NCBI GenBank assembly: GCA_009773335.1
Contig: WRPF01000007.1
Location: 1 to 64,000 of the forward strand
DNA: 64,000 bases
Origin: Caulobacteraceae bacterium
GTDB taxonomy: Bacteria > Pseudomonadota > Alphaproteobacteria > Caulobacterales > Aquidulcibacteraceae
Direction of reading: 5' to 3'
The position numbers were made by a program, and so were the translations under genes. Every line of letters begins with the position of its first letter. Position 1 is the stretch's first letter. The notes under the pieces were generated by a model. That model saw only the letters and a list, made by a program, of their open reading frames with translations. It ran no database searches and was not told the DNA's origin. Shown piece by piece: positions 46,825-49,462 of the stretch.

Positions 46825-47298
46825 TCATGACGTGTCCGCCCCTTCGGGCGTGCGGGCATGGACAGCGCACCGACACGCCTCCGCGACAAACGCGATGGCG
46901 ACGAGCCGTCGTCGCACGCGGGCGCGGCCGAGGCGTCTGACCATTTTCGCGATCGCGGCGCGCATGTTTTCAAGCAGCCGCCGCAGGCCCTTCAAGCTCC
47001 GCACTTTCACGCCACGCATGAAATGGCGCACGCGCCGGTGCGAGCCCGCATAGCGCAACCCCCGCCGCGCGCCCCACGGACGCTCCGACGGCAGCGGATC
47101 GGCGGGCCGCGCGATGTTCACGGCGTACGCCACAACAAGCAGCTTCGCGTCCGTGCAGGCGGCGCGGATGTCCTTCCTCACATCGAAGCCGAATCGCGCC
47201 GCCACGAACGCCATCAGCTCCAGCACCCACAGTCGAAGCGACTGGGCGATGCGGTCGAGCCTGGCGATGTCGGGGAGCGGCGGGGCTTTGTGTTTCAT
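46825..47298 (-). CDS. Small Arg-rich protein of unknown function, paralogue of the gene at 10337-10855
   Basis: 157 residues from ATG 47298 (a GTG at 47343 would add 15). Shares with the other copy the block AQSLRLW plus hydrophobic helix and GF (about residues 18-37), and later GLRYA...R...LRRLLENMRAAI against GFRYA...R...MRRVLDNLDAVV. Both end in DTS. Strongly basic, no signal peptide. It lies directly beside the repeat/DUF559 cluster. Function unknown. Confidence 0.62.
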   Translation of the reverse strand: MKHKAPPLPDIARLDRIAQSLRLWVLELMAFVAARFGFDVRKDIRAACTDAKLLVVAYAVNIARPADPLPSERPWGARRGLRYAGSHRRVRHFMRGVKVRSLKGLRRLLENMRAAIAKMVRRLGRARVRRRLVAIAFVAEACRCAVHARTPEGADTS

Positions 47299-47427
47299 GG
47301 GCGCCAGTATCGCAGCGCCGCGATCCCGGTCGGATAGATTCACGCGCGTGTGTTGGCGGGCATGGGTTTGCGGGGTGCTGGAGCGTGGAACGCGGGCGCG
47401 CGTTCCCCCTAATTTTCAGCAATCTTC

Positions 47428-47572
47428 CCTTCTCCCCCGCGAGGGGGAGAAGGTGGCCAAAGGCCGGATGAGGGGGCGTCCCCCAAATTGGCCCCGCCAC
47501 CCGACCACAGCCTCCACCTCACCCCCTCATCCTTCGCTTCGCGACACCTTCTCCCCCTCGCGGTGGAGAAGG
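47428..47572. repeat. Mirror-image pair of family-A palindromic repeats (A1, A2)
   Basis: A1 (47428-47478) starts with the hairpin ccttctccccc / gggggagaagg and ends in ggatgagggggcg. A2 (47522-47572) is the same element inverted, starting ccccctcatcc and ending in the hairpin. About 43 bp separate them. The pair lies immediately upstream of the DUF559 gene and A2 reaches to within 15 bp of its start codon. Confidence 0.88.
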
Positions 47573-47586
47573 ATTACACTGCCCCC

Positions 47587-47979
47587 ATGCCCCGCGATCC
47601 CGCGACACACGCCCGCGCACGCACCGAACGCCACGCGCTCACGGCGTCTGAAGCGAAACTCTGGGCCGCACTCCGCGACCGCCGCTGGAAGGAACTCAAA
47701 TTCCGCCGCCAGCACGCCGTCGGCCCCTACGTCGCGGACTTCGCCTGCCTCGCGCTGCGCCTCGTGCTCGAAGTCGATGGACAAAGCCACGCCGATCCCG
47801 AACAGGCCGCCTTCGATGCGCAACGCACCGCGTTTCTCGAAAACGCCGGATGGCGCGTCGCGCGCATTTCAAACACCGATGCACTCGCGGGCGGCGACGC
47901 CCTCTATCTCAAACTGGATGCGATTGTTCTCCCCCTTCTCCCCCGCGAGGGGGAGAAGGTGTCGCGAAGCGACGGATGA
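47587..47979 (+). CDS. DUF559 protein (Vsr/restriction-endonuclease-like fold), 3' end encoded by a repeat
   Basis: 130 residues from ATG 47587. TERHALTASEAKLWAALRDRR, WKELKFRRQHAVGPYVADFAC and LVLEVDGQSHAD are the DUF559 core. They include the Asp of VADF and the Glu-x-Asp-Gly of LEVDG that correspond to the PD-(D/E)xK nuclease site, and a WRVARISN strand follows. The last residues LPREGEKVSRSDG and the stop codon are read from the family-A repeat at 47934-47985, so the repeat was inserted into or captured as the gene end. The gene sits exactly between two mirror-image repeat pairs. Nuclease activity and any link to repeat spread are inference. Confidence 0.86.
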   Translation: MPRDPATHARARTERHALTASEAKLWAALRDRRWKELKFRRQHAVGPYVADFACLALRLVLEVDGQSHADPEQAAFDAQRTAFLENAGWRVARISNTDALAGGDALYLKLDAIVLPLLPREGEKVSRSDG

Positions 47980-48080
47980 GGGGGCGGGCCACAGAATAAA
48001 GTCGACCATTGCAGCCAATCGCCAACCCGCCCCCTCATCCGGCCCGCTGGGCCACCTTCTCCCCCTCACGGGGGAGAAGG
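47934..48080. repeat. Second mirror-image pair of family-A palindromic repeats (A3, A4)
   Basis: A3 (47934-47985) has the same orientation as A1 and overlaps the DUF559 3' end. A4 (48029-48080) is inverted. The spacing of about 44 bp equals that of A1/A2. The two pairs differ in the internal variable part: gtcgcgaagcgac in A2/A3 and ggccxxxggcc-like in A1/A4. Thus A2 and A3, nearest the gene, match each other best, as do A1 and A4. Confidence 0.88.
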
Positions 48081-48475
48081 AAAAACCCGCCGCCGCCAGC
48101 ACAGATCTTTCACGCGCGAGACACGGACAAACACACCCCGAAAACCCCGCTCAATTGCCTCCCCTGAATGGGGGAGGCAGGAGGGGGTCAGCGTCATGGT
48201 TGGTGGGGGCGCGAAACAGGTGGCGTGTGTGTCACCCTATCCGGATGAGGGGGCGAAGTTCAGGATGTAGTCGGCCGGCGGCCAATCCGGACCCGCCCCT
48301 CTCATTGGCCGGTCGGCGCCCTCTCTCCGCACCTGCAATACCGTCGCACGCACCCCTCCGATGTGAGGGACCACCATATGCCGGCAGATCATCTCCACTT
48401 CGTTGACAGACATCGCGGTGCAGCTTGACGCACACTTCAGGATGGGGGTGAATACGCTAACGTGGGGGCAATAGA
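48081..48475. other. Non-coding, repeat-rich stretch before the TIR gene
   Basis: About 395 bp with no convincing gene. It contains a hairpin gcctcccc / ggggaggc at 48157-48178 followed by aggagggggtc, related to family C at 10.1 kb, and a fragment of family A (ccggatgagggggcg) at 48241-48255. The TIR gene promoter should be in the last 100 bp: TTGACA occurs at 48403-48408 and TTGACG at 48425-48430, but no good -10 could be assigned. A G5 run at 48463-48467 may serve as ribosome-binding site. Confidence 0.55.
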
Positions 48476-49462
48476 ATGACTGATGTATTTATCAGCTACA
48501 AGAAGGAACGCAGAGAGCACGCGCAACGGCTCGCTGCATTGATTGAAGCGAACGGCTTCGACGTTTGGTGGGATTACGAACTCATTGTAGGACCCGCGTA
48601 CACTACACAGCTCGAGCAAAAGTTGCGGGAGGCCAGATCGGTCGTGGTGCTCTGGTGCACGGGCTCACGGGATTCGGTCTATGTTCAAGACGAAGCCAGG
48701 ATAGCTCAGCGAGCGCAAAAGCTTCTTCCGGTACTTCTGGAGTCAGTCAGCCCTCCGTTGGGTTTTGGAATGGATCAGTACGCTAATCTCACCACTTGGA
48801 CGGGATCGCCCACACACGTCGGCGTCCAAGCCATTTTGGATGGTGTCGCCCGCCTGACGTCTCGACCCGCAAAGCAGTCGCCAAATGTTCTCCACGTGCT
48901 CAGTCAACTTCAGCCCCTAACCGAGCTGGCCGCCATGTCGGTCGAGCCTGAAGAAGATTCGAACTCGCCCAGCCAAACACCAAAAATTGCGCCTCAGACC
49001 AACCCAAGAGGTGATGACCAAGTCGCGGAGTCGGCAACCGAACATGTGGTTGAATTTGCGGATTGGGTCAGGCGAGACGCCTCTGACGGTGAGTGGGAAG
49101 TCATATTGCAGGAGTTTGTGCACGGGTTGACGGAGATTTCCCGCGAGGACGTCGACGCCAATGTAGCGATCGATGCACGATTTTGGGGCGAAAGAATAAT
49201 TGTGGACGTGTGGCTGCCCCGGTTCAAAACACCTCGTCGCGTCATACTTCAGGACGTTGGTGGTTACGCAAACTACCCCGGCTACCAACTGGAACTATAC
49301 TCTGACGCTGGCGGTATTGATCTAAGGTACGAGCGCTTTCGGTGGATGACCACAAACCTCGGCACGAAACTGATGTTGAGAATCGTACCCAGCCACGAGT
49401 CCATAGGTTACAATTCTTTGCAACTGGCCGAGTACATCTGGAGCAAACTGAAGGCGCTATAG
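48476..49462 (+). CDS. TIR-domain protein with unrecognised C-terminal domain
   Basis: 328 residues from ATG 48476. The N-terminal TIR domain (about 1-125) is typical of bacterial TIRs: DVFISYKKERREHAQRLAALIE, then GFDVWWDYELIVGPAYTTQLEQKL, EARSVVVLWCTGSRDSVYV and LLPVLLESVSPPLGF. Such domains commonly hydrolyse NAD+ or make cyclic-ADPR-type signals. A polar linker (about 150-190) leads to a C-terminal domain of about 140 residues with many Trp/Tyr (VDVWLPRF, YANYPGYQLELY, RYERFRWMTTNLG) that I do not recognise. Base composition is near 50% GC, clearly lower than neighbours, so it is probably acquired. Ends 4 bp from lepA. Confidence 0.85.
   Translation: MTDVFISYKKERREHAQRLAALIEANGFDVWWDYELIVGPAYTTQLEQKLREARSVVVLWCTGSRDSVYVQDEARIAQRAQKLLPVLLESVSPPLGFGMDQYANLTTWTGSPTHVGVQAILDGVARLTSRPAKQSPNVLHVLSQLQPLTELAAMSVEPEEDSNSPSQTPKIAPQTNPRGDDQVAESATEHVVEFADWVRRDASDGEWEVILQEFVHGLTEISREDVDANVAIDARFWGERIIVDVWLPRFKTPRRVILQDVGGYANYPGYQLELYSDAGGIDLRYERFRWMTTNLGTKLMLRIVPSHESIGYNSLQLAEYIWSKLKAL

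What the first reader, a model, noticed from the sequence alone, without database searches (positions are those of the whole stretch)
47428..48080. DUF559 nuclease-like gene framed by two mirror-image pairs of palindromic repeats, with its 3' end made of repeat
Order is A1> <A2 gene A3> <A4, with equal spacing (about 43 bp) inside each pair. The inner copies A2 and A3 share the same variable segment, and the outer copies A1 and A4 share another. The last 13 residues and stop of the protein come from A3, and A2 ends 15 bp before the start. This geometry parallels REP elements around RAYT transposases, but the gene is a Vsr-like (DUF559) nuclease. Hypothesis: a nuclease-linked system that spreads or maintains these repeats, or a self-mobile unit consisting of gene plus four arms.
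Basis: partly seen in the sequence, partly recalled or inferred. Interest (0 to 1): 0.72.

Follow-up and report, generated by a model that had tools for sequence, protein, structure and literature searches.

The report
Nuclease gene paired with triplex repeats
A small DNA-cutting enzyme gene turns out, across many kinds of bacteria including E. coli, to sit beside copies of short repeated DNA that could fold into a three-stranded shape, which suggests that this enzyme is the long-missing partner that helps those repeats spread.

Summary
Each arm is a hairpin, a linker (here a mini-hairpin) and a purine tail that mirrors the hairpin's purine strand: a potential intrastrand triplex, the anatomy of E. 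coli BoxC/PIT/TM repeats. Such motifs lie within 250 bp of 78 of 84 DUF559 genes in 25 related genomes and 77 of 80 from many phyla, far above background. In 289 genomes of the class, three or more repeats occur in 55 of 73 with DUF559 and 13 of 216 without. DUF559 subfamily predicts repeat type even within genomes. In E. coli K-12 the DUF559 gene ycjD lies 167 bp from TMECO number 9, the only listed copy between 0.62 and 3.05 Mb; sampled strains lacking ycjD hold fewer copies (median 4 against 18). Sister units sit inverted, at unrelated sites, or are absent leaving one hairpin. The fold is close to homing endonuclease I-Bth0305I and Vsr. Best reading: a homing-like nuclease that spreads its cognate repeats. 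The partnership is near certain as a pattern; cutting and copying are inferred.

The parts
47428..47478 (+). arm A1: hairpin CCTTCTCCCCC-GCGA-GGGGGAGAAGG, mini-hairpin TGGCC-AAA-GGCC, purine tail GGATGAGGGGG(CG)
47522..47572 (-). arm A2, mirror orientation; mini-hairpin with TCGCGAAGCGA; ends 14 nt before the ATG
47587..47979 (+). DUF559 (PF04480) Vsr-like nuclease gene, 130 aa; conserved E22, D51, E62, D64, H68 (protein numbering)
47934..47984 (+). arm A3; encodes the last 14-15 residues and the stop codon of the DUF559 protein
48030..48080 (-). arm A4, mirror orientation; mini-hairpin GGCCC-AGC-GGGCC
48158..48187 (+). further short motif of a related kind: CCTCCCC-loop-GGGGGAGG-CA-GGAGGGGG
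   Evidence: read from the sequence; overlaps the motif that one search reports at 48156-48208 with another tail
48242..48320 (+). degenerate half-doublet; 79% identical to L052 9654-9736, inside the upstream doublet of the sister locus

Best explanation
The DUF559 gene and the triplex-forming hairpin arms are one partnership that spreads through bacterial genomes. The arm (pyrimidine strand, loop, purine strand, linker, mirror-image purine tail) is the cognate site of the nuclease. SHOWN by sequence: the arms flank the gene and covary as a purine-motif triplex would; the gene's subfamily predicts the arm type; genomes with the gene tend to hold many dispersed arms, and gene-free doublets occur; sister units are found at different sites, inverted, or absent with one hairpin left. 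INFERRED: the Vsr/homing-type PD-(D/E)XK nuclease nicks or cuts at an arm when it is extruded or single-stranded (replication, transcription); repair of the break from a copy elsewhere, with the arms as homology, copies in the gene with its arms (homing-like) or only a doublet. Doublets would be the non-autonomous form, as REPINs are to RAYTs. Arms at the 3' end can also serve as coding sequence and probably as terminator.
For: Position: triplex motifs 7.0 and 7.5 per kb within 100 bp up- and downstream of 84 DUF559 genes against 0.055-0.13 per kb at 2-12 kb; 78 of 84 with one within 250 bp, 52 on both sides, order arm> gene <arm in 30 of the 52. Breadth: 77 of 80 loci from many phyla, 5.28 against 0.114 per kb. 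Copy number: 55 of 73 against 13 of 216 genomes; Spearman 0.73 between DUF559 copies and repeats in 61 genomes; E. coli strains. Structure: purine-strand middles A, AA, AGA go with tail middles A/T, AA/AT, TGA/AGA, and G-run lengths correlate at 0.66. Specific recognition: co-variation of protein and arm class within genomes. Specificity: CGTC-type REPs near 0 of 194 DUF559 loci, triplex motifs near 1 of 30 GIY-YIG loci. Mobility: inverted unit at pgi-tkt, units at unrelated sites, an empty site. Enzyme: solved relatives are 3hrl, homing endonuclease I-Bth0305I and Vsr; the Caulobacter DUF559 protein VsrA is needed for the SOS response of a methylase mutant (PMC12907096 section 12).
Against: No cleavage of an arm by a DUF559 protein is known to me or appears in the listings of nine paper searches. 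No target-site duplication was seen; the E. coli doublet alleles that I fetched show deletions and replacements, not clean insertions. 13 of 73 DUF559 genomes of the class sample have no match to the repeat pattern, and 9 of 216 without DUF559 have five or more, 7 of these 9 with no DUF559 trace at E 0.01. Some ycjD-less E. coli keep many copies (an O157:H7 strain 12, an O7:H15 strain 20). 6 of 84 and 3 of 80 DUF559 loci lack a motif. Holder et al. saw the triplex in vitro but not by DMS footprint in vivo (discussion part 1). Inversion and the one-hairpin empty site could come from ordinary recombination between arms. A DUF1905 gene also lies between two doublets.
Confidence: 0.6

Rival explanations
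1. DUF559 is a Vsr-like mismatch-repair or structure-specific repair nuclease of the host; the arms are its substrates (hairpins or triplexes that need processing) or its own operator or terminator, and the pair is kept by selection for genome maintenance, not by self-spread.
For: Fold Z 11.5 to Vsr; Caulobacter VsrA acts in a DNA-damage phenotype linked to cytosine methylation (PMC12907096); arms touch the gene ends in a part of the loci.
Against: Patchy presence (73 of 289 class genomes at E 1e-15) with up to 8 copies in one genome, units at non-homologous sites and inverted, and matched gene-repeat classes inside one genome look like selfish or mobile behaviour; a repair gene would not need its substrate at its own ends in nearly every locus.
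Confidence: 0.15
2. Passive hitch-hiking: the repeats spread by another agent, and their sequence identity lets DUF559 genes move between genomes by homologous recombination, as any cargo could.
For: Inverted unit and one-hairpin empty site fit recombination between arms; a DUF1905 gene also sits between doublets.
Against: Only 3 of 937 other genes show such inverted flanks; repeat number tracks DUF559; arm class tracks DUF559 subfamily within genomes.
Confidence: 0.12
3. Terminator preference: DUF559 genes insert at, or are retained near, ordinary intrinsic terminators between convergent genes.
For: The empty site in G002 is one hairpin between the stop codons of pgi and tkt; many arms look terminator-like.
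Against: Terminators need neither a mirror tail nor a matching copy upstream of the gene; random places have flank similarity in 0 of 238 and triplex motifs in 7 of 238.
Confidence: 0.06
4. The conserved fold is not a triplex but a G-quadruplex or simply a protein-binding site, with the same partnership (compatible with the best explanation except for the shape that is recognised).
For: G-tracts are long; DUF559 could read duplex DNA as homing enzymes do.
Against: Watson-Crick pairing of the hairpin is kept and the tail mirrors the purine strand with A-to-T allowed, as T*A.T triads allow; Holder et al. showed the triplex of the E. coli motif in vitro by CD and NMR (abstract).
Confidence: 0.25

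Closest known systems
BoxC / PIT elements / TMECO intrastrand triplex motifs (Hoyne et al. 2000, not read; Holder et al. 2015, PMC4666352: abstract, sections 12, 15, 16, 18, 20 part 1 and passages read)
   Same: hairpin with purine-motif mirror tail; short linker such as TTA or CCG; five inverted pairs in MG1655; dispersed, intergenic; number varies between close strains
   Different: [quoted passage not shown] Their motif number 9 is the one beside ycjD
REP / REPIN repeats with RAYT (TnpA-REP) transposases (in part recalled; PMC3733652 abstract)
   Same: short palindromic repeats, inverted doublets, one gene flanked by them, gene-specific repeat type, many dispersed copies in hosts of the gene
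   Different: RAYT is an HUH tyrosine transposase and its REPs carry a GTAG tag; here the enzyme is PD-(D/E)XK Vsr-like and the repeat is a triplex hairpin
Vsr-fold homing endonucleases (I-Bth0305I, PDB 3r3p)
   Same: closest solved relative after 3hrl (E 1.6e-4; Z 13.2); 2 of the 3 phage hits of the window protein are annotated as homing endonuclease
   Different: I-Bth0305I is a mobile-intron protein (PDB molecule name); here the gene lies in repeats between genes and no target was shown
RIME and related rhizobial intergenic repeats
   Same: arm A3 matches 219 places in 118 plasmid records, 93 of them Rhizobium, best places mostly 80-90% identical; that these are RIME1 is recalled, not tested
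   Different: no partner gene has been described to my knowledge
CGTC REPs (Di Nocera et al. 2013, PMC3733652: abstract, section 6 and passages read)
   Same: palindromic repeats, mostly of alphaproteobacteria, said to lack a dedicated transposase
   Different: other sequence: CGTC tag, CCA tail; found near 0 of 194 DUF559 loci, but near 10 of 30 GIY-YIG genes
E. coli Vsr and Caulobacter VsrA
   Same: fold; VsrA (CCNA_02930) has a DUF559 domain and is needed for SOS induction in a methylase mutant
   Different: described as mismatch repair enzymes; the passages and section that I read do not link them to repeats

Membership tests
PF04480 DUF559 | profile match over the curated cut-off | tested here: met
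   98.2 bits against 20.6
Vsr-like PD-(D/E)XK nuclease | fold | tested here: met
   model pLDDT 89.3; 3hrl Z 15.1, I-Bth0305I Z 13.2, Vsr 1cw0 Z 11.5
Vsr-like PD-(D/E)XK nuclease | conserved acidic and histidine residues | tested here: met
   E22, E62, D64, H68 invariant and D51 nearly so in 72 sequences; their roles are inferred from recalled Vsr literature
Vsr-like PD-(D/E)XK nuclease | nuclease activity on DNA | not testable with these tools
   only indirect: VsrA phenotype in PMC12907096
BoxC/PIT/TM intrastrand triplex motif | Watson-Crick hairpin plus mirror purine tail (class II) | tested here: met
   four arms in the window; covariation in 314 arms near DUF559 loci
BoxC/PIT/TM intrastrand triplex motif | TMECO consensus with a 3-nt second loop | tested here: not met
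   window arms have a 12-14 nt mini-hairpin linker and another stem, so they are not TMECO; other DUF559 loci have 2-3 nt linkers
BoxC/PIT/TM intrastrand triplex motif | triplex forms in solution | not testable with these tools
   shown for TMECO in vitro by Holder et al. (abstract)
REP/RAYT | HUH tyrosine transposase as the flanked gene | tested here: not met
   the flanked gene is DUF559; the only other Pfam match is MTES_1575 below its cut-off. The genome was not searched for RAYT genes elsewhere
REP/RAYT | repeats paired in inverted order around the gene and dispersed in the genome | tested here: met
homing endonuclease | sequence and fold kinship to a known homing enzyme | tested here: met
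   3r3p E 1.6e-4, Z 13.2
homing endonuclease | cuts the empty site and is copied into it | tested here: inconclusive
   one empty site with a single hairpin; no cutting assay
CGTC REP | CGTC tag, stem, CCA tail | tested here: not met
   0 of 194 DUF559 loci
Rfam RNA families | match over gathering score | tested here: not met
   18 matches in 47300-48400, all below their gathering scores

The most novel reading that the evidence does not exclude
A categorically new class of mobile system: Vsr-type nucleases that recognise a DNA triplex (not a duplex sequence) and thereby home into and multiply triplex-forming repeats, which would explain the origin of BoxC/PIT/TM elements and perhaps of rhizobial RIME-like repeats; with GIY-YIG nucleases and CGTC REPs as a second, independent instance of the rule that a small homing-type nuclease keeps its own family of palindromic repeats.
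Probability: 0.35. Interest if true: 0.95.

Novelty: new variant of a known kind. Interest (0 to 1): 0.86.

Why it matters
BoxC/PIT/TM repeats have been known in E. coli since the 1990s (introduction passage), occur 3610 times in 262 proteobacterial genomes by one count (PMC4666352 section 16), and are tied to genome instability, yet had no partner and no function. A physically linked, co-varying nuclease gives a concrete agent, and E. coli K-12 holds the pair, so knock-out, overexpression and cleavage tests are simple. DUF559 is a common family of unknown function; this gives it a likely substrate. If GIY-YIG and CGTC REPs follow the same rule, much of the short palindromic repeat content of bacteria outside the RAYT sphere would have an explanation.

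Tried and rejected
Terminator-only and chance readings were rejected by flank similarity (50 of 84 against 3 of 937) and by the mirror covariation. Rfam gave no family over its threshold; the listed matches, mostly miRNA families, are hairpin artefacts in my view. A single-sequence AlphaFold model was useless (pLDDT 47); the model from alignment A2 was used instead. The E. coli ycjD-less locus is not a clean empty site: in the three strains fetched TetR and RND efflux genes stand there (also passages of PMC12817139). E. coli doublet sites alx-sstT and lldD-trmL gave deletion or replacement alleles and no target-site duplication; a third doublet locus was fetched and not used. The lepA neighbourhood of G002 has a solo doublet beside lepA but not at the window site, so it is not an empty site. 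The stretches of IHE3034 and 55989 did not reach the ycjD locus, so ycjD was not checked in those two strains.

Limits of the counts. The pattern used for genome counts misses arms with AA in the stem and A+T-rich arms, so zeros are lower bounds. The order set is 84 of the 144 DUF559 matches (fragments and some copies were not fetched because of the fetch cap); the class loci are the best one of each of 30 genomes; the 80 loci are those most like YcjD out of at least 567 confirmed, so they favour stand-alone YcjD-like genes. The class sample shares four genomes with the order sample (G000, G037, G038, G042). In one search hairpins without a recognisable purine run were dropped, and the tail pattern could not read ATGA, the tail of the window's own class (AGAA); the 8 arms of that class therefore fell into other cells. 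In one search, 22 of 194 loci without an arm class were dropped (11 of 84 in the order set). The random places come from the order-set regions only, while the GIY-YIG loci come from the class sample. E. coli counts are 60 records taken at even steps from 5393 and are not corrected for clonality. One search found no stop within 2 of 194 loci.

Full report
WHAT IS THERE. The window holds a 130-residue DUF559 gene (47587-47979, +; PF04480, 98.2 bits) between two inverted pairs of 51-nt arms: A1 47428-47478 (+), A2 47522-47572 (-), A3 47934-47984 (+), A4 48030-48080 (-). The gap inside each pair is the same. A3 supplies the last 14-15 residues and the stop. Each arm has three parts: a hairpin CCTTCTCCCCC-loop-GGGGGAGAAGG, a mini-hairpin whose letters differ between arms but stay mostly self-complementary, and a purine tail GGATGAGGGGG. 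The tail is the mirror image of the hairpin's purine strand with one A changed to T. That is what a purine-motif intrastrand triplex needs: after a turn the tail runs back along the purine strand and forms G*G.C, A*A.T or T*A.T triads (established chemistry, recalled).

IN THE OWN GENOME. G000 (4.03 Mb) has five DUF559 genes. The strict CTTCTCC hairpin has nine places of this kind: four here, three in gene-free doublets (L008, L015, L016) and two 770 bp apart on another contig. The wider triplex pattern has 86 matches in this genome (both strands together) and none for the same pattern read backwards.

ASSOCIATION WITH DUF559 IN RELATIVES. DUF559 occurs in 45 of 61 relatives, 144 matches in all. 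I took regions of up to 20 kb round 84 of the 144, from 25 genomes (and the window). Hairpins reach 5.8 per kb upstream and 7.1 per kb downstream within 100 bp, against 0.4-0.85 per kb at 1-10 kb. The 300-bp flanks of one gene resemble each other in inverted order (score 20 or more) in 50 of 84 DUF559 genes, 3 of 937 other genes and 2 of 354 small other genes. A finder for full triplex motifs gives 7.0 and 7.5 per kb within 100 bp against 0.055-0.13 per kb at 2-12 kb; 78 of 84 genes have a motif within 250 bp, 52 on both sides, 30 of these in the order arm> gene <arm, tails inward.

BREADTH. Of 30 loci from across the class, one per genome, 18 have flank similarity of 20 or more and 29 have a triplex motif in 350-bp flanks. 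Of 80 loci fetched from named genomes (titles name Gastranaerophilales, Dadabacteria, Chloroflexi, Nitrospirae, Deltaproteobacteria, Mariprofundus, Rickettsiales, Legionella, Xanthomonas, Enterobacter and others), 77 have a motif within 250 bp, 61 on both sides; density 5.28 per kb against 0.114 per kb beyond 700 bp. With a stricter score 74 of these 80 have one within 350 bp. Loci without a motif are L231, L234 (Legionella shakespearei) and L245 (Methylotenera).

MIRROR COVARIATION. Hairpins near 194 DUF559 loci were found by Watson-Crick pairing alone, and the first purine run downstream was read without asking for a mirror. In 314 arms the middle of the purine strand fits the middle of the tail: A with A (71) or T (58) of 143; AA with AA (17) or AT (13) of 31; AGA with TGA (93) or AGA (28) of 132; 8 arms of the window's class AGAA could not be scored properly because the tail expression did not cover ATGA. 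G-run lengths correlate (Spearman 0.66; one arm per locus, n 148, 0.66, p 3e-20). A permutation test on 367 arms of the order set agreed (mean mirror identity 0.685 against 0.639, sd 0.004).

GENOME NUMBERS. In a class sample of 289 genomes, 73 have DUF559 at E 1e-15. The pattern CTCCCCN{2,9}GGGGAGN{3,30}RWGGGG occurs at least three times in 55 of 73 with DUF559 and 13 of 216 without (Fisher p 8e-31), at least ten times in 42 of 73 and 5 of 216; medians 12 and 0. In 29 families with both kinds of genome, DUF559 genomes have more in 22, fewer in 4, ties in 3 (p 0.0003). In the 61 relatives, DUF559 copy number and repeat number correlate (Spearman 0.73). Against: 13 of the 73 have none; nine without DUF559 have five or more, and a looser search found weak or partial DUF559 matches in only 2 of these nine.

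CO-VARIATION OF GENE AND REPEAT. Arms fall into stem classes. Among 73 loci of the order set with a class, the most similar DUF559 protein of another genome has the same arm class in 57.5%, against 28.9% (sd 6.1) when classes are shuffled within genomes (p 0.0005); in the 99 one-per-genome loci 44.4% against 19.8%. So paralogues in one genome tend to keep different, matching repeats.

E. COLI. K-12 has ycjD, annotated as a DUF559 protein (NC_000913.3 1351407-1351760). A BoxC/PIT/TMECO motif lies 167 bp past its stop, and its 3' end is a decayed arm. This is motif number 9 of 23 in Table 1 of Holder et al. 2015 (1 351 239-1 351 204), the only one listed between 0.62 and 3.05 Mb. With 18 independent sites, the chance that one lies within 250 bp of a given gene of this size is about 0.003 (my arithmetic). 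In strain C4 the YcjD end RLSPSPQPSP is encoded by a whole motif with one stem mismatch. Of 5426 genomes, 3364 hold at least 80% of a ycjD-plus-BoxC query; among 60 records listed at even steps, 37 with ycjD have a median of 18 BoxC places (12-27) and 23 without have 4 (1-20). Strains are clonal, so this is a correlation. Holder et al. note 29 motifs in strain 55989 and one in IHE3034 (section 16) and never found mobility functions in the context. A 2026 paper says that ycjD stands in place of the eef operon in phylogroups A, B1 and C and two further sequence types (passages).

MOVEMENT. The window unit is at the same site in G001 (L052). A sister unit between pgi and tkt in G000 (L048 8371-8839; gene names are my reading of the translations) is at the same site in G001 but inverted, with ends at the outer hairpin edges and collinear flanks. 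In G002 the related unit is elsewhere (L055), and the pgi-tkt site is empty with one imperfect hairpin between the two stop codons (L323). The units of L046 and L050 are 78% identical with no flank match. I saw no target-site duplication. In E. coli, the Nissle allele lacks 75 bp between two CCCTCTCCC strands.

THE ENZYME. The alignment-based model (pLDDT 89.3) is closest to 3hrl (a Neisseria endonuclease-like protein, Z 15.1), the homing endonuclease I-Bth0305I (Z 13.2) and Vsr (Z 11.5); TnsA follows at 7.0, within the range of common arrangements. By sequence, 3r3p (I-Bth0305I) is reached at E 1.6e-4 and 1cw0 (Vsr) only at 0.67. YcjD was placed in the PD-(D/E)XK superfamily long ago (PMC1189080 passages). 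A Caulobacter DUF559 protein, VsrA, is needed for the SOS response of a methylase mutant (PMC12907096 section 12).

SPECIFICITY CONTROL AND SECOND LEAD. An outlier of the control genes was a small GIY-YIG nuclease between copies of another repeat (L117). In 30 GIY-YIG loci, 18 have flank similarity, 10 have CGTC-type REPs and 1 a triplex motif; in 194 DUF559 loci the numbers are 129, 0 and 181; in 238 random places 0, 1 and 7. CGTC REPs were published as apparently lacking a dedicated transposase (PMC3733652 abstract).

PRINT. The paper library lists 14 papers with DUF559 and 8 with ycjD. I judged these by titles and abstract starts, and opened passages of three of them (PMC12907096, PMC12817139, PMC1189080); none of what I saw links DUF559 to repeats. 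Most subscription journals and preprints are not held, so a published link cannot be excluded.

VERDICT. The partnership of DUF559 with triplex-forming repeats is close to certain as a pattern. That the enzyme acts on the arms and drives their spread by a homing-like route is the best reading (0.6), untested at the bench.

Noticed in passing
L117 7233-7535; L291-L320: Small GIY-YIG nuclease genes are also flanked by matching palindromic repeats, in part CGTC REPs (10 of 30 loci; flank similarity in 18 of 30). CGTC REPs were published as lacking a dedicated transposase.
   Followed up: partly
window 46825-47343 (-): The ORF beside the unit belongs to a family without Pfam match that has 48 matches in the own genome, 25 in G001, 2 in G002, 3 in G017 and none in the other 37 of 41 genomes searched: a strongly expanded lineage-specific family.
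   Followed up: no
window 48476-49462 (+): TIR-domain gene (PF13676) between the unit and lepA.
   Followed up: no
L053 12919-13545: In G001 a DUF1905 gene is also flanked on both sides by doublets of the window's repeat type, a gene other than DUF559 between two doublets.
   Followed up: no
L199 around 1036-1080: E. coli strain 2024CK-00616 has a 106-bp shorter ycjD locus: a deletion at the ycjD 3' end between short direct repeats leaves a truncated gene.
   Followed up: no
Rhizobium and Shinella plasmids: Arm A3 matches 219 places in 118 plasmid records, mostly Rhizobium, with no annotated feature under the listed best places; possibly the RIME repeats of the literature (recalled).
   Followed up: partly
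L115 9442-10402: Two DUF559 genes in tandem in G043, with long direct repeats of arms between and around them (direct flank scores 131.5 and 144).
   Followed up: no
L282 against L286 and L290: The alx-sstT intergenic region of E. coli has two unrelated alleles, one with the BoxC doublet and one with other sequence.
   Followed up: no
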